Shown here: piece by piece, positions 15,781 to 55,213 of the stretch
How the letters are laid out: each line of letters begins with the position of its first letter
Position numbering within the stretch: position 1 is the stretch's first letter
Source of the DNA: Clostridia bacterium
GTDB taxonomy: Bacteria > Bacillota > Clostridia > Oscillospirales > Acutalibacteraceae
Direction: 5' to 3'
Length of the DNA stretch: 64,000 nt
NCBI GenBank assembly: GCA_017625095.1
Contig: JAGALQ010000019.1
Location: forward strand, 1-64,000
Notes under the pieces: generated by a model
The model's input: the letters and a program-made list of their open reading frames with translations, nothing else
Told to the model about the DNA's origin: nothing
Databases searched by the model: none
Position numbers and translations under genes: made by a program

Positions 15781-15924
15781 ACAGCTTTGTTTTGGTCATG
15801 TGGTGTGTGGGTTCTGTGCGACGGTGCACTGCGAACCATGTCAGGCGGGGAACCGAGCAGCATTAAGCAGACCGCACGGTGCGCCACAGTCCGCCTGCAC
15901 ACTGCATGACCAAGGCAAAGCTGT
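15781..15924 (+). ncRNA. ffs: Signal recognition particle RNA
   Basis: A 144-base stretch folds into one long rod: ACAGCTTTG at 15781 pairs with CAAAGCTGT ending at 15924, with further pairing inward (GGTCATG with CATGACC). At the tip lies the universally conserved helix 8, GTCAGG ... GGAA ... GAGCAGC (15840-15861), which binds Ffh. Position immediately upstream of dnaX matches other Firmicutes. I do not see an Alu domain like that of the Bacillus long form, so this may be a small-type SRP RNA with a lengthened helix. The trailing TTTTATT may end transcription. Exact 5' and 3' ends are uncertain. Confidence 0.88.
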
Positions 15925-41880: not shown

Positions 41881-44800
41881 ATGAAAAAAACGTTTGTCAG
41901 GTTGTTATATGTGGCTATGTGCGTTGTTATGACGCTGACCGCAGCACCGCTCGGCGGATTTGTCGGACTTGATTTGCCGGGTCTGTTTGATATTCAAGCA
42001 GAGGCTGAGGAAAATATAAGTGGTGTAAAAAGAAGTGGAGACGGCTGGACAATTTATAATGACGGTGAATTGGTTATTACAAAAAACCTAACTTTCAGTG
42101 CAAATTATTACGATAACTCTTTTGATCAACATTATTTATATAAGTGGCCTTGGTGTAGTGCAGCTTATTATACTGATGGAGATTACAGTTGGGCAGGTGA
42201 AGGTATAAATTTTTATGGAATAACGAAGGTTACTATTAAGGAAGGTGTAACAGCTATTGGTAACTTTTTGTTTGCCGGACAACATGATATTAAGTCCATT
42301 ACAATTCCAAGTACGGTTACTTCTATAGGTGCAGGTGCATTCTACAGATGCACATCTCTTGAAACAATAAATATGGACTCGCCATTTTTGTCTTTAAATA
42401 CTTATGATCCTATTGGTCCGGCATATGGCGGTATGTTTCAAGAGTGTAGCTCGCTGAAAGAAATAGTTATAAGCAATAAAGTTACATCTATAGGCGATTC
42501 TTGCTTTAGCGGTTGTACCTCCCTTGAAAATGTAATGTTTGAAGAAGGTACAAACATTACCTCAATTGGAAGCAGTGCTTTTAGTTCTTGTTCTTTGCTT
42601 GAAAGAATTGCTGTTCCCGGTAACTATACTGAAATTAAGTCAAGCACATTCAGGGACTGCACATCTCTTAAAGATGTATTGTTGTCATCTACGGTTACAT
42701 CTTTGGGAGAAGGATGTTTTAAAAATTGCACTTCTGTTGAAGAAATAAATGTACCACCGAGGCTTAATAGCATTGGTCCCAGCGCTTTTAGCGGGTGTGA
42801 GTCTTTGATAACTCTTGAATTGCCGGATTCTCTTCAAACCATCAATAAAAATGCTTTTTTAAGTAGTGGAATAAGGCATATCGAAATACCTGGCGGGGTA
42901 ACAACTATTTTAAATACCGTTTTCTCAAACTGTTTGAATTTGGAAACTGTTATAATTAATGAAGGCACAACTACAATCAGCACCGATGCATTCAAACAAT
43001 GTGCCCGACTTAAATATATTGCAATCCCCTCAACATTAACAAATATTGCCCAAAATTCATTTACTGACTGCGTAAGCATTGGTTTAGTAATCTATCCCGG
43101 AGCGGAAGATTATTGGAATCAGATTAATGTTGTAACAACAGGTAATGAGTATTTTATTGCTGCTAACAGATTCTATAACCACTGGCACGGTGAACATACA
43201 CAGTTTTATCTCAGAGATTTTGTTCAGGTTACCTGCGAATCTTCGGGCTACACCGGCGATAAATGTTGTGCTGATTGCGGCTGGGTGTTTGAAATGGGCG
43301 AGCATCAGGATGCACTCGGTCACAATTACAGCCAGACTATAATTGATGCTACCTGTGTAAGCAACGGCTTCAAGTACACTGTTTGTCTTAACTGTAAGCA
43401 GAGCACAATTGATGAAATGTATGCTGCAACAGGTCACAGCTACAAGAGCAAGGTTACAAAGCCAACCTGTACAGACGGCGGTTATACACTCAATGTCTGC
43501 TCCAAGTGCGGACTTTCAACAATTACAAATGAAACCGAACCTCTCGGTCACGATTATGAAGAAACGGTAATTGAATCAACCTGTACAAGAGACGGATATA
43601 CTGTTCATAAGTGCAAACGTTGTAATTCGTCTTATATCGACGGTGAAAATCCCGCTTTCGGTCACAGCTATGTTGATACAGAGGTTAAGTCAACCTGTAC
43701 CGGTGTCGGTTACACTTCACATAAGTGCTCAACCTGCGGCGATGAGTATGTCACAAACGAAATTCCGGCAAAGGGACACAGCTATGAACCCATTGTTATT
43801 GCCGCTGACTGTACGAATACAGGTTATACAATCTTCATTTGCTCCGATTGCGGTATAGCATACAAGGGCGATGAAATCCCTGCAAAGGGTCACAGCTATA
43901 AAGATACTGTTATTAAGCCTACCTGTACAGAGGGTGGTCAGACGGTTCACGAATGTGCAGCCTGTGGAGAGACTTACATAGACTCTTATACAGAAAAACT
44001 CGGTCATAACTACGGTGAAACGGTTGTTGCACCGACTTGTGAAACCGAAGGCTACACAAAGCATGAATGTTCGAATTGCCACGATTGTTACGATACAGAT
44101 GTTGTACCGGCTACCGGACACGAGATGAAATCTGCAGTTGTCGAAGCAACATGTACATCAGACGGCTTTACTGTCAATTCCTGTACAAAATGCGGCTATT
44201 CATCAATCACAAATGAAACAAAAGCTTACGGACACAACTATCAGAAAGCGGTCGAAATAAAGCATACCTGTATCCAGGACGGTTGCACTCTCAACATCTG
44301 TGCAAATTGTAACGGCGTATCCAAAACAGACGGTACACCCGCAACAGGTCACTCATTCGGCGAATGGGGTGTTGTGAGCGAAGCGGGAGAAGATACCGAG
44401 GGCTTACAGACACGCACCTGTAAAAACTGCGGCTATACCGAAGAAAAAATCATATCAATGATTCAGCGCACCACATTCAACGTCACATTTAAAGCGGATG
44501 GTGAAACCGTTGCTGTTGTAGAGTACCTCAAGGGTGCGACAGAGATTGAAGAACCGCCCGTTCCTCACAAGGCAAGACATAACGGCAGATGGAGCGATTA
44601 CAGCCTTAATGACAGCGACATTACCGTTGAGGCGATTTATGATGTTATTGATCTTGATACTCTTGATGGTATAGATTACGGAAAATCATCTGTTTATAAT
44701 CCCAATACGGGTGTTGCAACTATTAACGTTTATGCCGCATCAAGCGGTAAAACCGTTATTTCAACCACTACCACGCAGACTCCGCTTGATATTGTACTTG

Positions 44801-47800
44801 TCGTTGATCAGAGCGGCAGTATGGATTATAAGCTCGGCGGCAGCACAACAAAGAAGCAGGCACTTATCAATGCGGCTAACAACTTTGTAAATGCTGTTTA
44901 TGATGATGCGGCCGAACATTCTGTTGACCACCGCATTGCTGTGGTAGGCTTCGGTATGGGCAACAAGTCGAGCGGAGCACAGTATCCCGCTTTTCTTAAT
45001 ACTGAAATCCTGACAACCGGCGGAAATCCCGTTCAGTTTAACAAAGCATCAGCAGAAGATTATACAAATGCACTTATGAGCGTATGCGTTGACGGCAGCC
45101 TTAATAAATCTGTTACAAAAGCTGTTAACAATATTGATGCAAACGGTGCTACCGCTGCCGATTACGGTCTGTCGATGGCAAACAGCATATTCGCAAACAA
45201 CAGCGATGCTTCAGGCAGAGAGCGTATTGTTGTATTTATGACTGACGGCGCTCCGACATATTCAAGCGACTTCAGCGTTGACGTTGCTAACTCTGCTATT
45301 CTTCAGTCAAATGAACTCAAAAATACATACGGAGCAAGCGTATACAGCATAGGTGTAATGAGTAACGATGACATAAATCAGCAGAATGTAGGCAGATTTA
45401 TGGAGTATGTTTCATCAAATTACGGTAACGCTCAGAATGTAAATAAAAAGTATACCGCTGTCAGCGATAAGTACTATATGCACGTCAATAATACAAATGC
45501 GCTTAACGATATATTTACCGGAATCGTAACGGAGAATATTACCAGAACTACAGATTTCGATAATATTACAATAATCGATACCGTATCCGAGTATTTCACT
45601 CTTACCTCACAGCAGGAAAAGGCTTTGAGAATCAACCTGATCGAAACATTCGGCATAAGAAATTCGGACATTGTTGTTGATCGCCAATCAGACGGAACAA
45701 CCGCAATTACAGTTAAAAATCTCTCACCTGTTGATAATGGAGAGAAGTTTGTTATAGATTTCAGCTTTGAAGTTTCGGCCAACCAAAAAGCCGCAAACGC
45801 TGGCGTTTATCCGACAAATACTTCCGATTCTGGTATTCTGATTGACGGTGCAGAAAACTATGAATGTGTATTCACTGTTCCGAATATCACAGTGCCTGCA
45901 GACCGTAAAACCGCCGTATTCAGAATCAACGGCGAGATTTATGAAATCAGCACATGCTTCTCAAACAATATAACGGCTCCCAAAACAGATTTCATCGGTG
46001 ATTATCAGTTTACCGGTTGGGATCTTAAAGCTGATGACCTTTCAGACGGATATGCAGAATATGATTCAACCTATGTAACTCAGTCTTATGTTGTAATCTG
46101 GAACATTGACGGTGAGAAGAAAACTGTTGAATATGAACCGGGTCAGGTTATTGACGAGCCTGTTGTTTTTCCTGACGGCAACGGAAATGCATTCAGAAGA
46201 TGGAACGGAAAAGTGCCGCTTACAATGCCTGCTGAAAGTATAGAATTTACTGCTGTTTACGGTGACCACGAGCACATTTATGTAACGGAAACTGTTACAC
46301 AGGTAACATGCACATCAGACGGAGTACTCAGGCATACCTGCAGCATTTGCGGTGACAGTTACAGTGAAACCGTAAAGTGCATAGGTGAACACAGCTGGCA
46401 GGCTATTGCGGGTTCATCCGGAAATGAAACATCATACGAAACCTTTGAGTGTGAGTATTGCGGTGAGCATAACGGATATTCTCTTGAGTATACCGAAAAA
46501 GAAAACAACGGAAACGCATACGGACACGTCAATAAGAAACAAAAGGTTAATGAGTTCAATTATGTTGACGGTGACGGCAATAAGGCTCAGCCTGACGGCG
46601 ACATTAATATAACATCAACGGTTTATGACGATTTTGCCGATGCGGAAGATGTTTATGTTTACCGTGTTAATGAGAACGGCGAAAATGTACTGTGTGATTC
46701 GGAATATGAAAACGGAGTAGTTTCTTTTGAAACCAATCATTTTAGTACATACATTTTTGTTCCGATATATAAATGTACAACTACGGGCAATCACACAGAT
46801 TCTGAATCGGATAATTACTGTGATGTTTGCGGTTCTCAGATTGAAAAAGAGGTTACAGTTAACTGGTATGTTGACGGAAAAACCGTAAAAGCAGACACAT
46901 ACCGTAAGGGTGACTTAATAAACGCACCTGAGAATCCGACAAAAGACGGAGCTGATTTCGTTGGCTGGAATCCGGATGTTCCGACTTATGCTGAAGATGA
47001 TGACCTCAACTTTGTTGCGATGTGGAACGTTGCAGAGCATGAGCACAGCAGCGTTATAATAGGAGCGTATGATCCTACTTATACACAGCCCGGATATACA
47101 GGCGATGAATACTGTTCTATATGCGGCGAATTACTTAAATCGGGTGAAAAGGTTTCGGCAACTGTAGTTTATGCTAACGGAAACACCGTGATAGATTCGG
47201 AAAGCAACACAATTTACGGCTTGTCAGCAGGCGTTAACTCGATTGACGGACATCTGACAGTTGCTGATGATAAGTACTCAATCAGCTGTCAGTCGGTTGA
47301 ATCCGGTCTGGGAACAGGTTCAAAGGTTGTTGTCAACAACGGTGAAGCTGTTATTGCTAAATATACTGTCATCATCTTCGGTGATATAGACGGTAACGGT
47401 TGGTACGATGCAAACGATGCATTTATAGTCAATATGATTGCGAGCGGTCTTATTTCAGCTGACAGACTCAGTGCCGCACAGTTCAGAGCGGCAGACTGTA
47501 ACCACGACGGTGATGTTGACGATGCTGACTTTTATCTGCTCAATCAGGCAAGTCTTATGATTGAAGACATCGACCAGTCTGCAACTCAGGCAGAACTTGC
47601 AACAAACGCAATGTATATCAGCTATTGCTCACTGATTGATCAGACAGCAGGAGAGGAGACAAACCTTGTTCCCGAGCCTGAAAATAATGAAGCACCGTCA
47701 GACAATACGGCAGACGTAGAGCAAAGCGAATCTGCAGATACAACTGATTTTGAAGCAATCTTTATAAAGATTATTGATTTCTTCAAAAAGATTTTCACTT

Positions 47801-47826
47801 TTCTGTTCTCGTTCATAATCAAATAA
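41881..47826 (+). CDS. Giant secreted BspA/LRR-VWA-dockerin surface protein
   Basis: 1981 residues, exported by an N-terminal signal peptide. In order: BspA-type leucine-rich repeats (about 125-410, e.g. SIGDSCFSGCTSLENV); ten units of about 38 residues with C-x10-C-x2-C and GHxY (about 450-850), which look like repeated zinc-ribbon-like beta modules; a Listeria-Bacteroides (Flg_new) type repeat; a von Willebrand A domain with MIDAS Asp976-x-Ser978-x-Ser980 and MTDGAPT; a beta-rich, possibly isopeptide domain; further Cys units and Flg_new repeats; and a dockerin type I-like pair of Ca2+ loops (GDIDGNGWYDANDAF from Asp1835; DCNHDGDVDDADF). The last 25 residues are hydrophobic and basic. An adhesin or scaffold role is inferred. 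TTCGGGAGGTAAAAGATT precedes the ATG. Confidence 0.87.
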   Translation: MKKTFVRLLYVAMCVVMTLTAAPLGGFVGLDLPGLFDIQAEAEENISGVKRSGDGWTIYNDGELVITKNLTFSANYYDNSFDQHYLYKWPWCSAAYYTDGDYSWAGEGINFYGITKVTIKEGVTAIGNFLFAGQHDIKSITIPSTVTSIGAGAFYRCTSLETINMDSPFLSLNTYDPIGPAYGGMFQECSSLKEIVISNKVTSIGDSCFSGCTSLENVMFEEGTNITSIGSSAFSSCSLLERIAVPGNYTEIKSSTFRDCTSLKDVLLSSTVTSLGEGCFKNCTSVEEINVPPRLNSIGPSAFSGCESLITLELPDSLQTINKNAFLSSGIRHIEIPGGVTTILNTVFSNCLNLETVIINEGTTTISTDAFKQCARLKYIAIPSTLTNIAQNSFTDCVSIGLVIYPGAEDYWNQINVVTTGNEYFIAANRFYNHWHGEHTQFYLRDFVQVTCESSGYTGDKCCADCGWVFEMGEHQDALGHNYSQTIIDATCVSNGFKYTVCLNCKQSTIDEMYAATGHSYKSKVTKPTCTDGGYTLNVCSKCGLSTITNETEPLGHDYEETVIESTCTRDGYTVHKCKRCNSSYIDGENPAFGHSYVDTEVKSTCTGVGYTSHKCSTCGDEYVTNEIPAKGHSYEPIVIAADCTNTGYTIFICSDCGIAYKGDEIPAKGHSYKDTVIKPTCTEGGQTVHECAACGETYIDSYTEKLGHNYGETVVAPTCETEGYTKHECSNCHDCYDTDVVPATGHEMKSAVVEATCTSDGFTVNSCTKCGYSSITNETKAYGHNYQKAVEIKHTCIQDGCTLNICANCNGVSKTDGTPATGHSFGEWGVVSEAGEDTEGLQTRTCKNCGYTEEKIISMIQRTTFNVTFKADGETVAVVEYLKGATEIEEPPVPHKARHNGRWSDYSLNDSDITVEAIYDVIDLDTLDGIDYGKSSVYNPNTGVATINVYAASSGKTVISTTTTQTPLDIVLVVDQSGSMDYKLGGSTTKKQALINAANNFVNAVYDDAAEHSVDHRIAVVGFGMGNKSSGAQYPAFLNTEILTTGGNPVQFNKASAEDYTNALMSVCVDGSLNKSVTKAVNNIDANGATAADYGLSMANSIFANNSDASGRERIVVFMTDGAPTYSSDFSVDVANSAILQSNELKNTYGASVYSIGVMSNDDINQQNVGRFMEYVSSNYGNAQNVNKKYTAVSDKYYMHVNNTNALNDIFTGIVTENITRTTDFDNITIIDTVSEYFTLTSQQEKALRINLIETFGIRNSDIVVDRQSDGTTAITVKNLSPVDNGEKFVIDFSFEVSANQKAANAGVYPTNTSDSGILIDGAENYECVFTVPNITVPADRKTAVFRINGEIYEISTCFSNNITAPKTDFIGDYQFTGWDLKADDLSDGYAEYDSTYVTQSYVVIWNIDGEKKTVEYEPGQVIDEPVVFPDGNGNAFRRWNGKVPLTMPAESIEFTAVYGDHEHIYVTETVTQVTCTSDGVLRHTCSICGDSYSETVKCIGEHSWQAIAGSSGNETSYETFECEYCGEHNGYSLEYTEKENNGNAYGHVNKKQKVNEFNYVDGDGNKAQPDGDINITSTVYDDFADAEDVYVYRVNENGENVLCDSEYENGVVSFETNHFSTYIFVPIYKCTTTGNHTDSESDNYCDVCGSQIEKEVTVNWYVDGKTVKADTYRKGDLINAPENPTKDGADFVGWNPDVPTYAEDDDLNFVAMWNVAEHEHSSVIIGAYDPTYTQPGYTGDEYCSICGELLKSGEKVSATVVYANGNTVIDSESNTIYGLSAGVNSIDGHLTVADDKYSISCQSVESGLGTGSKVVVNNGEAVIAKYTVIIFGDIDGNGWYDANDAFIVNMIASGLISADRLSAAQFRAADCNHDGDVDDADFYLLNQASLMIEDIDQSATQAELATNAMYISYCSLIDQTAGEETNLVPEPENNEAPSDNTADVEQSESADTTDFEAIFIKIIDFFKKIFTFLFSFIIK

Positions 47827-49960: not shown

Positions 49961-50003
49961 AAAACAACCGCTTTGCCTTTGCTGAAGGTAAAGCGGTTGT
50001 TAT
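49961..50003. terminator. Bidirectional terminator
   Basis: AACAACCGCTTT.CCTT pairs with AAGG.AAAGCGGTTGTT, between the DUF1349 gene and the convergent end of the dehydratase-like operon. Confidence 0.88.
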
Positions 50004-50004
50004 A

Positions 50005-50688
50005 TTATCTGTCAGCTTTGTTGAAGTGAAGCTCTTTCATTCCCTCGACCTCGTCGCAGATTGCTTTGAGGTTGCAGGTGTCACAGTCAAAATTAACGCT
50101 GTTCATAATGTGGTTGAGCGTTTCGGTTATTGCGTAATTCTTTTCGGCAATTCTCTCGGCTTCGTTGTAGTCTGCTTCTTTTGCCGTTATAAATATAACC
50201 TTAACACCTTTGACAGCAGGGATTTCCTTATACTTTTCAATCAGCAGTGAGCCGATTTTTTTGAAATCAGCACCGTCGTTCAACGCTTGCTTTGAAACAC
50301 GCACAGCCTCTTTGTGTGAGCGTGAGGTGCTGCGCATCATATAGCCGTCGGGGAAACAGTGGTATTTGACATAGTCAATCTTTTTTATAAGGGAATATGC
50401 TTTCTGCTCGTCGTCACTGTCCTCAATCTGCACAAGTGTGATGCGTGCAAATCTGCGGCTGTCTTTTATTTCTCCGAGATCATCACCGACAACAACAATT
50501 GAGTCGCAAACATCGTCGGAAGTGACAAGGTTAAAGCCGACACCCTCAAGCTCGTATGCGGTATCGCGCCGCATTATCACCTGTGCCTGCTGTGCATCTT
50601 GCCACGGCTTGCATAACTCAAATTCCTTTTTCGGAAAAGCAGAAATTAACTTTTCGGTTTTAAGAATCAACGGATCGAAGAATTTCAT
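50005..50688 (-). CDS. Acetyl-CoA synthase-like (AcsB/CdhC middle-domain) protein
   Basis: 227 residues, not a full enzyme. From recall, residues 60-190 resemble the central part of acetyl-CoA synthase: VVVGDDLGEI, the KKIDYVKYH segment, RVSKQALNDGADFKKIGSLL and VKVIFITAKEADYNEAERIA. The end carries Cys202-x2-Cys205-x5-Cys211; the classical A-cluster ligands of AcsB (C-x2-C-x8-C-x9-C plus a later C-G-C) are only partly represented, so a canonical Ni-Fe-S A-cluster is unlikely, though a simpler Fe-S or metal site is possible. Its start overlaps the preceding gene's stop by one base. It is the last gene of the operon. Confidence 0.6.
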   Translation of the reverse strand: MKFFDPLILKTEKLISAFPKKEFELCKPWQDAQQAQVIMRRDTAYELEGVGFNLVTSDDVCDSIVVVGDDLGEIKDSRRFARITLVQIEDSDDEQKAYSLIKKIDYVKYHCFPDGYMMRSTSRSHKEAVRVSKQALNDGADFKKIGSLLIEKYKEIPAVKGVKVIFITAKEADYNEAERIAEKNYAITETLNHIMNSVNFDCDTCNLKAICDEVEGMKELHFNKADR

Positions 50689-50843
50689 CAGAGCTTTTTA
50701 TCCCTCTTCATTGTGTCATAGTGCTTGCCGAGCAGGTCATAAACCTTGCGGATAAGCTTCATATCGAGATTGAAAAAATAGATTGCGAACGTAATAACAA
50801 AAAGTGCAAGGATAACACCGAGAATTATCAGAATAATTTCCAT
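50688..50843 (-). CDS. 51-residue single-pass membrane protein
   Basis: The start is ATG 50843, two bases after the activase stop; a longer frame lies inside the activase gene and is rejected. One membrane helix (about 2-26, IILIILGVILALFVITFAIY) is followed by a basic amphipathic tail ending KRDKKL. No family is recognised. Its position inside the operon, coupled on both sides, suggests a membrane anchor or electron-transfer partner for the Fe-S proteins. Confidence 0.7.
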   Translation of the reverse strand: MEIILIILGVILALFVITFAIYFFNLDMKLIRKVYDLLGKHYDTMKRDKKL

Positions 50844-50844
50844 A

Positions 50845-51639
50845 TTACTTATCCAGTCCCTTCTGTCGTGCATATTCTGCCGCACCGAGTGCGCCCATAA
50901 GCTGCGGGTCTGTAGCAAGCTCGACAACCTTTATTTTGAGCACCTTTTCGATTGCTTTTTTCAGTCCGTCATTTTTTGCACATCCGCCTGTGAGTGTTAT
51001 GCTGTCGGTTGCACCTGCTTTTTTAGCCATAACAAAGCATCTCTTTGCAACGGCAAGCTGAATACCTGCCGCGATTTCATCCATCGGCTTGCCCTCACCG
51101 ACAAGTGAGATAACCTCGCTCTCAGCAAAAACAGTGCACTGTGCAGTGATCGGAATTGTGTTTTTAGCTTCAAGTGAAAGCTTCGAAAACTCGGGCAGAG
51201 TCATTTCAAATGCGTTTGCCATAGCTTCGTAAAATCTGCCTGTGCCGGCGGCACATTTGTCGTTCATAGCAAAGTTTTTGACTGTGCCGTCTGTGTCGAT
51301 TGAAATGCCCTTTACGTCCTGACCGCCGATGTCAATAATAGCCTTGACTTCGGGGTTTGTAACGTGAACACCCATTGCGTGACAGCTGATTTCAGAAATG
51401 TTTTCATCGGCAAAGGGAACCTTGTTTCTGCCGTAGCCGGTACCGATGAGGTATGTAAGCTCCTCGGCTGAATTAAGTCCTTCTACCTGAGCAACAGCGT
51501 CGTTGAGTGCGATTTCAGCACTTGCAACGGGATTGATTTTGCTTCTGTTTGTGACGCTTGCAACAATTTTGCCTTTTTCATCAAGAATAACACATTTTGT
51601 GTATGTTGAGCCGACGTCACATCCGCCGAAATATTTCAT
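50845..51639 (-). CDS. 2-hydroxyacyl-CoA dehydratase activase (HgdC/BadF family)
   Basis: 264 residues. The ASKHA ATPase fold is clear: GGCDVGSTYTKCVI phosphate-1 loop, IIDIGGQDVKGI phosphate-2 and TGGCAKNDG adenosine motif. Cys129 (CAAGTGRF) and Cys168 (QCTVFAESEV) match the two cysteines per subunit that hold a bridging [4Fe-4S] cluster between two protomers in HgdC. It uses ATP to inject a low-potential electron into the partner Fe-S enzyme. The gene is 14 bases after the large subunit gene. Confidence 0.9.
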   Translation of the reverse strand: MKYFGGCDVGSTYTKCVILDEKGKIVASVTNRSKINPVASAEIALNDAVAQVEGLNSAEELTYLIGTGYGRNKVPFADENISEISCHAMGVHVTNPEVKAIIDIGGQDVKGISIDTDGTVKNFAMNDKCAAGTGRFYEAMANAFEMTLPEFSKLSLEAKNTIPITAQCTVFAESEVISLVGEGKPMDEIAAGIQLAVAKRCFVMAKKAGATDSITLTGGCAKNDGLKKAIEKVLKIKVVELATDPQLMGALGAAEYARQKGLDK

Positions 51640-51653
51640 AGTTTATTTCTCCT

Positions 51654-53186
51654 TTACCAAGCTAAATCGTCTTCGAAATCAACAAGTGAGGGGTCGAGCG
51701 GCTCCTCCTGAAGAACGGTCTGCATATATTTGTTGACCTGCTCGCGCATATCGCGTCTTGATATTGTTCTGGGGTCCATCAGGTCTTGTTTGACCCAGAT
51801 AAAGTTGATGTTTCTCTCTCTTGCCTGGTCATCGAAGATGCCTGCAAGTCCGTCCATACCCTTGCACGAAATCTGATCATACATAATAACCGTATCGGCA
51901 CCGTATTCTTCAACAATTCTCCACAGCTCGTCAACAACGTTTCTGTAGCCGCCCTTTGTGTGCTTACGCATAATTGAACGCTGATATGTTTTGGCAACGT
52001 CTTTAAGTGCCTGTTCTTTGTCGGAAGTATCGTACTTGATATAGGAAATCATTGTTTCCATATCCATAACAACGTTCATACCCCAGCAGTTTTCGAGCCA
52101 GTTTGCAAAGCTTGTATAGTAGTTGGCAGGACAGCTCCATACAACCGCACGGTGGCGCATTTCTTTTGAAACCGCTTCTTTGTTTTCATAGCCCTTGAGC
52201 ATAAGCTTGTTGACTTTTTTGTCAACTTTGAGGAATCGCTTGTCTGCACCGCCCGAAAGGTTGAAATAGTAGATTCTGTAAAGCCAGAATGCGGCACCCG
52301 TCATCTGCGGATATTTTGTTTTGTTTATATCCCACTTTTCAAGCTCATATTCAAGCTGTTTGTTTGATGTTTCAAGTGCTTTGAAAAATACGTCCCAGTC
52401 AAACTTTTCGCCTGTGTGTTCTTCAATAAACTTTATAAGCTCCTTGACCTCTTCAACCGCGTATTCCTGAACATCCTCATCATTATAACGAAGCGGAATG
52501 TTGAACAGATGAACGGGCAGATTAAGCCTTCTGTCAAGGAAGGTTGAGTTCATAACAGAGCCGTCACACGGCATATTTGTAGCCACCATACAGCAGCCCA
52601 TCTTCGGGTAATCGTCATCAATCGCAACGCCTGCCTCAGCAGAGGGAAGGGGACATACGTCGGCAGGTACACCGAAGCTTTCCGTAACCTCGAGATAGGG
52701 CGGAGTTATCTGCTGGTCAACCATTGAGGTGAGGAAAATCGGAATTGTCTGCAGCGGAACAACCTTGAGATTCGGGAAACCTGAGAAAATCTCATTCGGA
52801 ATGATTTCGTCTGTAAGAACGATTTTCTTTGAAAGCTTGTTTTTGGGGTTGATTTTCTCATCCGCAACAAAGGATGTGTTGATAAGTCCCGTTGCGTGCT
52901 TGACTATCATATTGAAATGCAGGTGAACAATGCGAAGGTGTGTGCCGCGAAGACCTGCGGTGTGTCTGTCGATAAAAGAAGGTGTTGAAAGGTAGGAAGC
53001 CATCCAACGGTATTTCCATAAACCTCTGACAGTTGAGATTGGTGCCTTGAGCACCATAACTATCATATCTTTCCACGTTACAAGCCAGCGGTAATAGTCA
53101 TACATCGTGTCTTTGAAACCGCGCCATTCTCTGTGCTTAAGAACAGCTTTGCGGTCTTCTGAATAGAGCTTTCCGAGGTCAGCCAT
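51654..53186 (-). CDS. 2-hydroxyacyl-CoA dehydratase-type large subunit
   Basis: 510 residues from ATG 53186, which overlaps the end of the preceding gene by 8 bases; a 43-codon upstream extension inside that gene is rejected. It belongs to the HgdA/HgdB, BcrB/C and double-cubane-cluster family. Candidate cluster cysteines are Cys178 (DVCPLPSAEAG) or Cys207 (MPCDGS), one in VWSCPANYY, and Cys441 (ISCKGMDG). It lacks the PEEL(I) start seen in many family members and carries about 100 extra N-terminal residues rich in Trp/Tyr. Probably half of a heterodimeric Fe-S reductase with the next gene. Confidence 0.8.
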   Translation of the reverse strand: MADLGKLYSEDRKAVLKHREWRGFKDTMYDYYRWLVTWKDMIVMVLKAPISTVRGLWKYRWMASYLSTPSFIDRHTAGLRGTHLRIVHLHFNMIVKHATGLINTSFVADEKINPKNKLSKKIVLTDEIIPNEIFSGFPNLKVVPLQTIPIFLTSMVDQQITPPYLEVTESFGVPADVCPLPSAEAGVAIDDDYPKMGCCMVATNMPCDGSVMNSTFLDRRLNLPVHLFNIPLRYNDEDVQEYAVEEVKELIKFIEEHTGEKFDWDVFFKALETSNKQLEYELEKWDINKTKYPQMTGAAFWLYRIYYFNLSGGADKRFLKVDKKVNKLMLKGYENKEAVSKEMRHRAVVWSCPANYYTSFANWLENCWGMNVVMDMETMISYIKYDTSDKEQALKDVAKTYQRSIMRKHTKGGYRNVVDELWRIVEEYGADTVIMYDQISCKGMDGLAGIFDDQARERNINFIWVKQDLMDPRTISRRDMREQVNKYMQTVLQEEPLDPSLVDFEDDLAW

Positions 53187-54384
53187 TGTTTTTCGCCTGC
53201 CTTTCCTTCTGTATTTTCTTGATTTCAAGGCTTTCAACAAAAGCCTGAACACGGGTGCGCAGCTGACCCGAAGCAGAAGCTGTGTACTGCCTGTCAACCG
53301 CAGCTGTGGGTACACCGTAGTCGTTGCTCATAACGTAGGATGCGAGCGCTCTTTCGTAGCCCCAGTATTCGCAGAATTTGAGCTGTTCGTACATGACGCC
53401 GTCTGCGTGATATTCGTCAACAAGACGCTTTACATAATCTCTGCGCTCCTGAACCTTTTCGTGACTCATATATCTTGGGCACTGACTTGTTCTCAGATAG
53501 TGCATACAAATCTGCGTCAGAACATCTTCATCGGGATTTATTGTTATTTCCTCTCTGCCGGGCATTGCGCCGAAGCAGTATCTGTCAGCAACAACAAGTG
53601 CACCACTGTCTTCAATAAGTGCAGTGAAATCGGGATCGTCCATTTCAGAACCGACAACAACGATTTTTGCTCTGAAGTTTTTCTTTGCGTCAGGCTCGCG
53701 TGTCTTAAGCTCTTCTGCTGTTTCACGCAGCTTTGGCAGAATAAGGCTCTTCGGGCAGCAGTATGTAACAAGGTTGAGTATGTGGTATTCGTAGCCTGTG
53801 ATGCGCGGGTTATCCTCTTTGCGGTAGTTGCCGATTTCCGTCATAATACGGCATACCTCGTTATGCTCCTCAACAGCCTTCAGCAGTGCCTCATCTGATG
53901 TATCGATGCCGTAGACTTCAGACATTTTGTCAAGTATCTTAAGTCTTGTCTGCTTGACATAGTGTCTTACCGTGTGGTCTGCAATTTTAAAAGGCATATC
54001 AAGAAAAGTCAGGAAGAACTTTTCGTTTTCAACAAGGTTGAGCAGCTCAAAGTGCTCTGCCGCTCTGTTCATTTCGGAGCAGGTTTCGCTTGCGAGCAAT
54101 GCGTCAAGGAAATTGTAGCCGCCTTCAATCGCTCTTTCGAGTATTGCCTTTGAGTAGCCGCAGAGGAAATTGCTCATATAGTATGTTGCAATATCCAGCG
54201 AGCCTGTGCGAGGTGCTCTGAGTCTGACGGAAAAGCAGTTGCCGCAGTTGAGCAGAACCTCGGGTATGTGGTAGCAGGTGTAGCCAAGGGCTATACCGCC
54301 GTCTTTTTTAGCTTGCTGAACAAGTGTGTTGTTTGCTTCCTGCAGCAGATTTTCAAATTCATAAAGGTGTTTTAAATCTCTCAC
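53179..54384 (-). CDS. 2-hydroxyacyl-CoA dehydratase-type small subunit
   Basis: 401 residues. It keeps the three expected cluster ligands: Cys37 (GYTCYHIPEVLLN), Cys102 (ETCSEMNRA) and Cys338 (LKFCEYWGYE). The C-terminal segment PTAAVDRQYTASASGQLRTR is characteristic of the family. This subunit is closer to the family norm than its partner. Its start overlaps the CooC-like gene's stop (ATGA), so expression is coupled. The true substrate is unknown: no acyl-CoA-processing gene is nearby. Confidence 0.85.
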   Translation of the reverse strand: MRDLKHLYEFENLLQEANNTLVQQAKKDGGIALGYTCYHIPEVLLNCGNCFSVRLRAPRTGSLDIATYYMSNFLCGYSKAILERAIEGGYNFLDALLASETCSEMNRAAEHFELLNLVENEKFFLTFLDMPFKIADHTVRHYVKQTRLKILDKMSEVYGIDTSDEALLKAVEEHNEVCRIMTEIGNYRKEDNPRITGYEYHILNLVTYCCPKSLILPKLRETAEELKTREPDAKKNFRAKIVVVGSEMDDPDFTALIEDSGALVVADRYCFGAMPGREEITINPDEDVLTQICMHYLRTSQCPRYMSHEKVQERRDYVKRLVDEYHADGVMYEQLKFCEYWGYERALASYVMSNDYGVPTAAVDRQYTASASGQLRTRVQAFVESLEIKKIQKERQAKNNG

Positions 54385-55148
54385 TTCAGAATCCCCATTT
54401 CAACAAGAGCCTTTTTAGCTCCTTCAACAACGTTTGAATCGTCCGGTAGTTTTGTTATGTCTTTGCCTTCAATATCATAAATAGCAAGGTTTGAATCGGT
54501 CGGAATATATGACAGAACGGGTATGCCGTTTGTATCGATGTAGGGAATAACGCTTTCATCGGGAATGCGGTTGACTATTGCGCCGACTTTTTTGTACATC
54601 ACAAGCTCATCGGCAACGCTCTTGATTGTAGAAATAACCTGCGTGCCCTTTTTGCTTGCATCCGTTATGAGCAGAAGGTGAGTGACCTTTTCCATAACGC
54701 GGCGGTTAATCTGCTCAATGCCTGCCTCACCGTCAATTACGACGTAGTCAAATTCATCTGAAAGGATGCTGATAACTTCCTTGAGGTAGGAGTTTATTCT
54801 GCAGTAGCAGCCTGCACTTTCGGGTCTGCCTACAGCGATGAATGCAAAGCCGTCAGTTTCAACAAGTGCGTCAAAGATTTTGTATCTTGCGTCACCGAGC
54901 AGCTCGATTGCAGCCTTTGTCTGACCGTCTTCGACTGTTTCTACGATTTCCTTGCGGATGTCATCAATTGTCATTCTGACATCAATGCCGAGTGCTGTCG
55001 AAAGACCTACCGCAGGGTCAGCGTCAATTGCAAGTATCTTCTTGTCGGGATAAGCCTGCACAAGCAGCTTTACTATTGCGGCGGAAATTGACGTTTTGCC
55101 TACTCCGCCTTTGCCCGAAAGGGCTATGATTGTTGATTTTTCTTTCAA
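54381..55148 (-). CDS. CooC-like P-loop ATPase
   Basis: 255 residues, SIMIBI/MinD class. The deviant Walker A is SGKGGVGKT at 11-19 with the signature lysine, and DADP at 42-45. Cys114-x-Cys116 (GCYC) matches the metal-binding CxC of CooC, the nickel-insertion ATPase of CO dehydrogenase, and the flanking GRPESAGCYCRINSYL is also CooC-like. It probably matures the metal centre of an enzyme in this operon. The start is TTG 55148, 8 bases after AGGAGTGA. It is the first gene of the operon. Confidence 0.85.
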   Translation of the reverse strand: MKEKSTIIALSGKGGVGKTSISAAIVKLLVQAYPDKKILAIDADPAVGLSTALGIDVRMTIDDIRKEIVETVEDGQTKAAIELLGDARYKIFDALVETDGFAFIAVGRPESAGCYCRINSYLKEVISILSDEFDYVVIDGEAGIEQINRRVMEKVTHLLLITDASKKGTQVISTIKSVADELVMYKKVGAIVNRIPDESVIPYIDTNGIPVLSYIPTDSNLAIYDIEGKDITKLPDDSNVVEGAKKALVEMGILK

Positions 55149-55184
55149 AGAATTTCACTCCTGTTTCAGGATATTAATGAAAAT

Positions 55185-55213
55185 AGTATAACATTTTTAT
55201 CCGGTTTTTTCAA
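55185..55213 (-). promoter_or_regulatory. Promoter of the CooC/dehydratase-like operon
   Basis: On the minus strand, TTGAAA (55213-55208), 17-base spacer, TATACT (55190-55185). Confidence 0.65.

What the first reader, a model, noticed from the sequence alone, without database searches (positions are those of the whole stretch)
50005..55213. Unusual operon: CooC-like ATPase, two-subunit dehydratase/double-cubane-type Fe-S enzyme, activase, micro-membrane protein and truncated acetyl-CoA synthase-like protein
Six genes in one direction are joined by overlaps or gaps of at most 14 bases behind one promoter. The activase and the two subunits carry the expected cluster cysteines, but the partners of amino-acid fermentation (CoA-transferase, electron-transfer flavoprotein, acyl-CoA dehydrogenase, decarboxylase) are absent. 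Instead there is a CxC-bearing CooC homologue, the class that inserts nickel in CO dehydrogenase, and a lone protein like the middle of acetyl-CoA synthase with a reduced Cys set. Known relatives of the subunits include benzoyl-CoA reductase and the double-cubane proteins that reduce small molecules such as acetylene. Together this suggests an ATP-driven, low-potential metalloenzyme with an unknown substrate, possibly with a heterometal or with a link to one-carbon or corrinoid chemistry.
Basis: partly seen in the sequence, partly recalled or inferred. Interest (0 to 1): 0.85.

Follow-up and report, generated by a model that had tools for sequence, protein, structure and literature searches.

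The report
Modular ATP-driven gut reductase with nickel-enzyme parts
A six-gene cluster found in many gut and rumen bacteria appears to encode an unstudied, membrane-tethered enzyme that uses ATP to drive very difficult reductions, carries parts related to nickel enzymes, and often sits beside enzymes that saturate carbon-carbon double bonds.

Summary
The operon is real (50005-55148, minus strand): CooC/AcsF-like ATPase, two HGD-D subunits, activase, 51-aa membrane protein, ACS-like protein. It is conserved: 70 of 73 loci holding both the ATPase and ACS-like genes keep the exact order, and in 391 Clostridia genomes subB and the ACS-like protein match strongly in the same 7. SubA keeps all six [8Fe-9S] cysteines of BzdN and the double-cubane protein (HadC has four, MbdN three); subB keeps the three of an open [4Fe-4S] site. 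I read this as a reductase rather than an amino-acid dehydratase. The ACS-like protein is the ACS middle domain plus three cysteines that may match its A-cluster. Subunit pairs also occur as satellites, so the system is modular. Double-bond reductases (OYE or isoprene-reductase type) lie beside 32 of 73 loci, though not in this window. A one-carbon link is not supported.

The parts
54381..55148 (-). CooC/AcsF-like P-loop ATPase (P0006, 255 aa, TTG start) with CxC at C114/C116
   Evidence: CxC in 84 of 84 distinct sequences
53179..54384 (-). subA (P0005, 401 aa, GTG start): HGD-D subunit with the six cysteines of an [8Fe-9S] double-cubane site (C37, C75, C102, C270, C302, C338)
   Evidence: each Cys in 126 of 126
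51654..53186 (-). subB (P0004 without its first residue, 510 aa, ATG start): HGD-D subunit with three cysteines of an open [4Fe-4S] site (C178, C207, C441), an extra C367, and an N-terminal part with an REWRGxKDT motif
   Evidence: 127, 127, 127 and (C367) 126 of 127 (where numbers are one higher)
50845..51639 (-). activase (P0003, 264 aa), BadF/HgdC-type ATPase with conserved C129 and C168
50688..50843 (-). 51-aa single-pass membrane protein (P0002) with an NLDxK motif
   Evidence: 19-residue hydropathy above 1.6 in 113 of 115 relatives; D27 and K29 at least 97% conserved
50005..50688 (-). ACS-like protein (P0001, 227 aa): ACS middle (A2-type) domain plus C202-x2-C205-x5-C211
55185..55213 (-). 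promoter-like site TTGAAA-N17-TATACT with extended TG
   Evidence: consensus match only
49963..50001 (.). 18-pair hairpin just past the operon, possible terminator
   Evidence: listed on the + strand

Best explanation
A modular, ATP-driven, membrane-tethered reductase of the benzoyl-CoA reductase / double-cubane / 2-hydroxyacyl-CoA dehydratase superfamily. Shown by sequence: the six genes are a conserved unit; subA has the [8Fe-9S] ligand set, subB the three-cysteine open [4Fe-4S] set, the activase two conserved cysteines; subunit pairs, mostly with their membrane protein, also occur without the other genes. Inferred: the activase dimer hydrolyses ATP and passes one strongly reducing electron at a time to the double cubane of subA, which feeds the substrate-bound [4Fe-4S] of subB; the CooC-like ATPase and ACS-like protein mature a metal site or hand electrons to the activase and serve several subunit pairs; the 51-aa protein tethers the subunits to the membrane. 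Inferred from neighbours: the substrate is an unsaturated, aromatic or hydroxylated organic acceptor whose conversion is prepared or completed by a double-bond reductase (OYE/BaiCD type or isoprene-reductase type), giving the cell an electron sink or a detoxification route.
For: Ligand sets: six BzdN/double-cubane cysteines aligned in subA, present in 126 of 126; three MbdO cysteines aligned in subB, present in 127 of 127. The clusters of BzdNO are from PMC11971306 (abstract, section 5 part 1, section 9). Best NCBIfam hit of both subunits is the double-cubane reductase, ahead of the dehydratase models. Unit: 70 of 73 loci in exact order; same 7 of 391 genomes. Modules: 38 satellite subB genes, 38 with subA directly upstream, 32 with the membrane protein directly downstream; the core/satellite label changes at least 9 times over well supported branches; in L109 and L125 and L154 ATPase, activase and ACS-like genes stand together and subA, subB and membrane protein form another group. 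Neighbours: of 73 complete loci 25 have an OYE-type and 7 an IsrA-type gene within 2.5 kb; Oxidored_FMN in 14 of 105 nearest genes and Fer4_20 in 7 of 105, each in at most 1 of 115 genes further out. IsrA-type proteins have the domain order and the two CxC motifs 74 residues apart that are described for the putative isoprene reductase, in 15 of 15 examined. Satellites beside IsrA-type genes: L084, L085, L087, L153.
Against: The cysteine argument is not clean: HadC, a dehydratase subunit, keeps four of the six positions, MbdN, a reductase subunit, only three; the three-cysteine site of subB is shared with HadB as far as aligned, and on BzdO the second cysteine is off by one residue and the third lies in a separate weak match. 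41 of 73 complete loci, 30 of them with at least 2.5 kb on both sides, and the window itself have no such reductase near. The gene samples were drawn unequally: near, 105 picked by hand, nearly all from 161 candidates; far, 115 of 169 drawn by script. The rate ratio is circular, its probes being near hits. L041, L042 and L082 lack parts of the unit. Genomes of satellites L084 and L085 gave no CdhC match, but the same search also missed the known ACS-like genes of L075 and L094, so it does not decide. BzdNO uses a two-protein activator BzdPQ; here there is one activase gene. No structure, activity or substrate evidence exists.
Confidence: 0.47

Rival explanations
1. A divergent 2-hydroxyacyl-CoA dehydratase: ATP is used once to start a radical dehydration of a 2-hydroxy acid, and the neighbouring OYE-type enzyme saturates the enoate, as in reductive amino-acid fermentation.
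For: HGD-D fold in both subunits, single HgdC-type activase; HadC keeps four of the six subA cysteines and HadB the aligned subB cysteines; OYE-type genes beside 25 of 73 complete loci. That such enoate reductases pair with dehydratases in Clostridium sporogenes is recalled.
Against: HadC lacks counterparts of C37 and C270, which subA keeps in 126 of 126; dehydratase models score far below cut-off (subB 30.5 of 750, subA 85.9 of 700); no CoA-transferase, ETF or acyl-CoA dehydrogenase among the matched flanking window genes or the 25 commonest of 142 neighbour families.
Confidence: 0.2
2. A small-molecule reductase like the double-cubane protein, acting on acetylene- or azide-sized compounds rather than on an organic acceptor with its own ene-reductase.
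For: Best NCBIfam score is double_cubane (142.3 bits subA, 59 subB, cut-off 350); single activase gene.
Against: The double-cubane protein has one kind of subunit (recalled); here there is a partner with a different three-cysteine site, and organic double-bond reductases recur next door.
Confidence: 0.12
3. A replacement for CO dehydrogenase/acetyl-CoA synthase, i.e. one-carbon chemistry, which could explain acetogenic bacteria without the canonical complex such as Candidatus Galacturonibacter (PMC7000372, abstract and passages).
For: CooC-like and ACS-like genes; FTHFS in 38 of 40 genomes (no background measured); the best CooC-like relative in G184 (171.5 bits) lies next to what looks like acsV, against 70.3 bits for the one beside CO dehydrogenase (gene names by recall).
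Against: True ACS in 3 of 40 genomes and strong CoFeSP in 4 of 40; the ACS-like protein ends before the later A-cluster ligands; no Wood-Ljungdahl gene among the recurrent neighbour clusters or the 25 commonest families. Whether Galacturonibacter has the operon, and whether these genomes have CO dehydrogenase, was not tested.
Confidence: 0.05
4. The operon mainly activates another protein, for example a corrinoid protein, with the subunits as an electron relay.
For: Related ASKHA ATPases activate corrinoid proteins (recalled); ATPase, activase and ACS-like form a separable module.
Against: subB has an open-site [4Fe-4S] set like the catalytic one of BzdO/MbdO, and subunit pairs have diversified; no corrinoid family among the 25 commonest neighbour families.
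Confidence: 0.05

Closest known systems
Class I benzoyl-CoA reductase BzdNO (8s02) and 3-methylbenzoyl-CoA reductase MbdNO (9g87)
   Same: Pair of HGD-D subunits; six-cysteine [8Fe-9S] subunit as in BzdN; three-cysteine [4Fe-4S] subunit; ATP-driven activation.
   Different: Far below the BCR model cut-offs; MbdN lacks three of the six cysteines; single activase gene; subB has its own N-terminal region and extra C367; CooC-like, membrane and ACS-like proteins added.
Double-cubane cluster protein (6eno, 7yyl)
   Same: Six-cysteine set in subA, single activase gene, highest NCBIfam score.
   Different: Two unlike subunits; 142.3 and 59 bits against a cut-off of 350.
2-hydroxyisocaproyl-CoA dehydratase HadBC (3o3m)
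   Same: Fold, activase type, four of six subA cysteines.
   Different: Lacks counterparts of C37 and C270; far below cut-off.
CooC / AcsF ATPases (3kje)
   Same: GKGGVGKT P-loop and CxC motif.
   Different: No CO dehydrogenase or full ACS in the operon; true ACS in only 3 of 40 host genomes.
Acetyl-CoA synthase (1oao, 7zkj)
   Same: Middle domain, residues about 330-490, and possibly the first three A-cluster cysteines.
   Different: 227 aa only; later A-cluster ligands absent.
Putative isoprene reductase IsrA of Acetobacterium wieringae (PMC10134865: abstract, section 9 and passages)
   Same: Genes beside 7 complete loci and several satellites; the 8 of these examined share its domain order or CxC pair.
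   Different: A partner, not part of the six-gene unit; it also stands without the operon, usually with HypA.

Membership tests
Class I benzoyl-CoA reductase | two HGD-D subunits encoded together | tested here: met
Class I benzoyl-CoA reductase | six-Cys [8Fe-9S] subunit as in BzdN | tested here: met
   alignment and invariance only; MbdN of a related reductase keeps only three of the six, so the feature is not universal in this family
Class I benzoyl-CoA reductase | three-Cys [4Fe-4S] catalytic subunit as in BzdO/MbdO | tested here: met
   exact on MbdO; on BzdO second Cys off by one and third in a weak separate match; 127 of 127; shared with HadB as far as aligned
Class I benzoyl-CoA reductase | curated equivalog score | tested here: not met
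   subA 88.5 of 453.8 (bzdN), 52.2 of 421.15 (bcrC); subB 24.6 of 486.55 (bcrB)
Class I benzoyl-CoA reductase | two-protein activase | tested here: not met
   one activase gene in the six-gene unit; a second activase belongs to a satellite in L062
Class I benzoyl-CoA reductase | reduces benzoyl-CoA | not testable with these tools
   needs enzyme assay
Double-cubane cluster protein | six-Cys site | tested here: met
   subA
Double-cubane cluster protein | curated equivalog score | tested here: not met
   142.3 and 59 against 350 bits
2-hydroxyacyl-CoA dehydratase | HadB/HadC equivalog score | tested here: not met
   30.5 of 750, 85.9 of 700
2-hydroxyacyl-CoA dehydratase | CoA-transferase partner | tested here: inconclusive
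   absent among flanking window genes with a Pfam match and the 25 commonest of 142 neighbour families; rest of the genome not searched
CooC/AcsF | P-loop and CxC motif | tested here: met
   84 of 84
CooC/AcsF | inserts nickel | not testable with these tools
   needs metal analysis
Acetyl-CoA synthase (CdhC) | middle domain | tested here: met
   PF03598 32.3 bits over 24
Acetyl-CoA synthase (CdhC) | complete A-cluster ligand set | tested here: not met
   three cysteines only; TIGR00316 33.3 of 355.95
Wood-Ljungdahl pathway component | co-occurs with ACS and CoFeSP | tested here: not met
   3 and 4 of 40 genomes with strong matches

The most novel reading that the evidence does not exclude
A nickel- or mixed-metal member of the benzoyl-CoA reductase superfamily: the CooC/AcsF-like ATPase loads metal onto the A-cluster remnant of the ACS-like protein, which then acts as metal donor or dedicated low-potential electron donor for a family of exchangeable, membrane-tethered subunit pairs that hydrogenate unactivated or aromatic double bonds in the gut, perhaps including steps of fatty-acid biohydrogenation in Butyrivibrio.
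Probability: 0.15. Interest if true: 0.93.

Novelty: new variant of a known kind. Interest (0 to 1): 0.7.

Why it matters
It would add a branch with its own assembly parts to a superfamily that does some of the hardest reductions known in biology, and the branch sits mainly in gut and rumen Clostridia. If the double-bond reading holds, it could supply missing enzymes for anaerobic saturation or dehydroxylation of dietary compounds. It also allows a direct test of whether acetyl-CoA synthase machinery was reused outside carbon monoxide chemistry.

Tried and rejected
One-carbon/acetogenesis role: tested with FTHFS, CdhC and CdhD in 40 genomes (7 G-handles and 33 of the 79 named loci, chosen by me; three of them, L055, L084 and L085, were reached through satellites). 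CdhD gave a match at E 1e-3 in 23 of 40 and over the Pfam cut-off in 14; I count as CoFeSP only the four with E below 1e-70 (G184, G296, G407, G413, the last at a contig edge). The other matches are short, mostly in frames of 770-911 aa, and I take them as methionine synthase (recalled).

HypA as a nickel partner of the operon: HypA sits near several loci. In G477, G486, G601 and G681 the only HypA found is beside the operon or a satellite, with no NiFe hydrogenase match. But in 8 of 10 other HypA places fetched, an IsrA-type gene lies in the same stretch without the operon (L133 and L135 have none). So HypA seems to go with the IsrA-type partner, and I do not count it as evidence for nickel in the operon.

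Plasmid carriage: no plasmid record matches P0001; four records match P0005 at 22-24% identity. Phage families: only a ParA-like match for the ATPase.

Literature: nine searches ran (61, 82 and 92 had other aims); none showed a description of the operon. Only open-licence PMC papers are covered. Of PMC11574389, a review of gut Fe-S enzymes, I saw passages: the dehydratases are covered, double-cubane is not mentioned.

A slip: I asked for activase positions 127 and 166, which are not cysteines; the conserved ones in the same output are C129 and C168.

Full report
What is in the window. Six minus-strand genes between 50005 and 55148 form a tight operon with a promoter-like site upstream and a hairpin downstream. 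Pfam and PDB sequence comparisons give a CooC-like ATPase, two HGD-D subunits (subA, subB), a BadF/HgdC-type activase, a 51-residue protein with one membrane helix, and a 227-residue protein matching the middle domain of acetyl-CoA synthase. The genome, 87% complete, shows only these two HGD-D genes. Flanking genes with Pfam matches are a BspA-type repeat protein, a GFO/IDH oxidoreductase, DUF1349, a SpoU methylase, phosphoesterase-type enzymes, another BspA-type protein and a pectate-lyase-like protein; two have no match.

Is the unit conserved? The loci are mainly from Clostridia of gut and rumen, with one spirochaete (L094) and two records titled Bacteroides or Bacteroidaceae (L045, L098). 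Of the 73, 70 keep the exact order ATPase-subA-subB-activase-membrane protein-ACS-like; the others are L109, L121 and L125. Of the 25 partial loci, 22 are cut by a contig end; L041 (no ATPase, no activase), L042 and L082 (no ATPase, no ACS-like gene) are not. The genome of L042 has a CdhC match in a 240-aa frame on another contig. The loci were found through subB, so its presence is given, that of the other five is not. Many loci are close relatives, so they are not independent.

An independent check used 391 Clostridia genomes: seven have a strong subB match (best E per genome 1.8e-219 or lower) and the same seven a strong ACS-like match (3.4e-71 or lower). Weaker subB matches (13 further genomes) are partial, in frames of 384-462 aa, and I take them as other HGD-D proteins; weaker ACS-like matches (10 further genomes) are in frames of 537-978 aa, as expected of acetyl-CoA synthase. 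The trait is patchy: 9 of 375 genomes in the order, absent from the one other species of the genus listed; 21 of 250 in family f31; 2 of 19 in genus g91.

Cluster sites. In BzdNO, BzdN carries an [8Fe-9S] cluster on six cysteines and BzdO a [4Fe-4S] on three cysteines plus water (PMC11971306, section 5 part 1). Reading the printed alignments: all six subA cysteines fall on cysteines of BzdN and of the double-cubane protein; HadC has four of the six (not C37, C270); MbdN, of a related reductase, has three (not C37, C270, C302). Each of the six is in 126 of 126 distinct subA sequences. In one search three subB cysteines fall on cysteines of MbdO; on BzdO the second is off by one and the third is in a separate weak match; HadB shares the two that are covered. 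They are in 127 of 127; a fourth, C367, is in 126 of 127. So the double-cubane reading of subA is well grounded, while the step from there to 'reductase, not dehydratase' is an inference. The ATPase CxC is in 84 of 84, the ACS-like C202, C205 and C211 in 78 of 78. A forced global profile alignment puts these three on the C-x2-C-x8-C stretch of acetyl-CoA synthase; the free local alignment stops before it. That this stretch holds the first A-cluster ligands is recalled. The match is suggestive, not proven.

Modules. There are 38 satellite subB genes without a following activase; 38 have subA directly upstream and 32 the membrane protein directly downstream. On a tree of 55 subB sequences the core/satellite label must change at least 9 times over well supported branches, and 11 satellites form one group on a long branch. 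In L109, L125 and L154 the ATPase, activase and ACS-like genes stand together while subA, subB and the membrane protein form another group. I read this as an activation module and an exchangeable catalytic module; it is the main argument that the ATPase and ACS-like protein serve assembly or electron delivery. Against it: the genomes of satellites L084 and L085 gave no CdhC match, though the search also missed known ACS-like genes in two genomes.

Neighbours and substrate. Within 2.5 kb of the 73 complete loci lie an OYE/BaiCD-type gene in 25, an IsrA-type gene in 7 and neither in 41, 30 of the latter with enough flank on both sides to tell. OYE genes of several types sit upstream or downstream, which suggests more than one origin of the pairing. 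Oxidored_FMN is in 14 of 105 nearest genes and Fer4_20 in 7 of 105; in 115 genes further out each is in at most 1; the two samples were drawn differently. The IsrA-type proteins match the putative isoprene reductase of Acetobacterium wieringae in domain order, in HypA, HypB or DUF5692 neighbours where they stand alone, and in two CxC motifs 74 residues apart, found in 15 of 15 examined, 8 of them beside the operon or a satellite. I did not hold the IsrA sequence itself, and IsrA activity is proposed, not proven, in that paper. Both partner types are double-bond reductases by family, which is why I favour an unsaturated, aromatic or hydroxylated acceptor. The window has neither.

What it is probably not. 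True acetyl-CoA synthase is in 3 of 40 genomes and strong CoFeSP in 4 of 40. The window genome shows no other CdhC match, no HypA and no NiFe hydrogenase. CO dehydrogenase was not searched. The idea that this operon supplies the missing carbonyl branch of Candidatus Galacturonibacter (PMC7000372, abstract and passages) is weak and untested.

Electron path, inferred. NAD(P)H by way of a flavoprotein, or reduced ferredoxin, gives electrons to the activase, perhaps through the three-cysteine site of the ACS-like protein; ATP lowers the potential; the electron passes to the double cubane and then to the catalytic cluster. Every step past the cysteine sets is inference.

Novelty. Nine searches of the open PMC library showed no description of the operon. 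Fold and ATP-driven chemistry are of a known kind; the gene set, the extra parts and the modular layout are, as far as I could find, undescribed. I rate it a new variant of a known kind.

Noticed in passing
   Followed up: partly
window 41881-47826: A 1981-aa protein with BspA-type leucine-rich repeats, a von Willebrand A domain and many repeated two-cysteine units.
   Followed up: no
window 15805-15903: Bacterial small SRP RNA (58.5 bits).
   Followed up: no
L045 and L098: Operon contigs from records titled Bacteroides/Bacteroidaceae group with Clostridia sequences on the subB tree; mislabelled, misbinned or recently transferred.
   Followed up: no
L062:3026-14900: Core and a second subA-subB pair with its own activase in one run of genes, followed by a 944-aa OYE-type fusion.
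   Followed up: partly
window 50688-50843 and relatives: The membrane protein has a nearly invariant NLDxK motif at the end of its helix; function unknown.
   Followed up: partly
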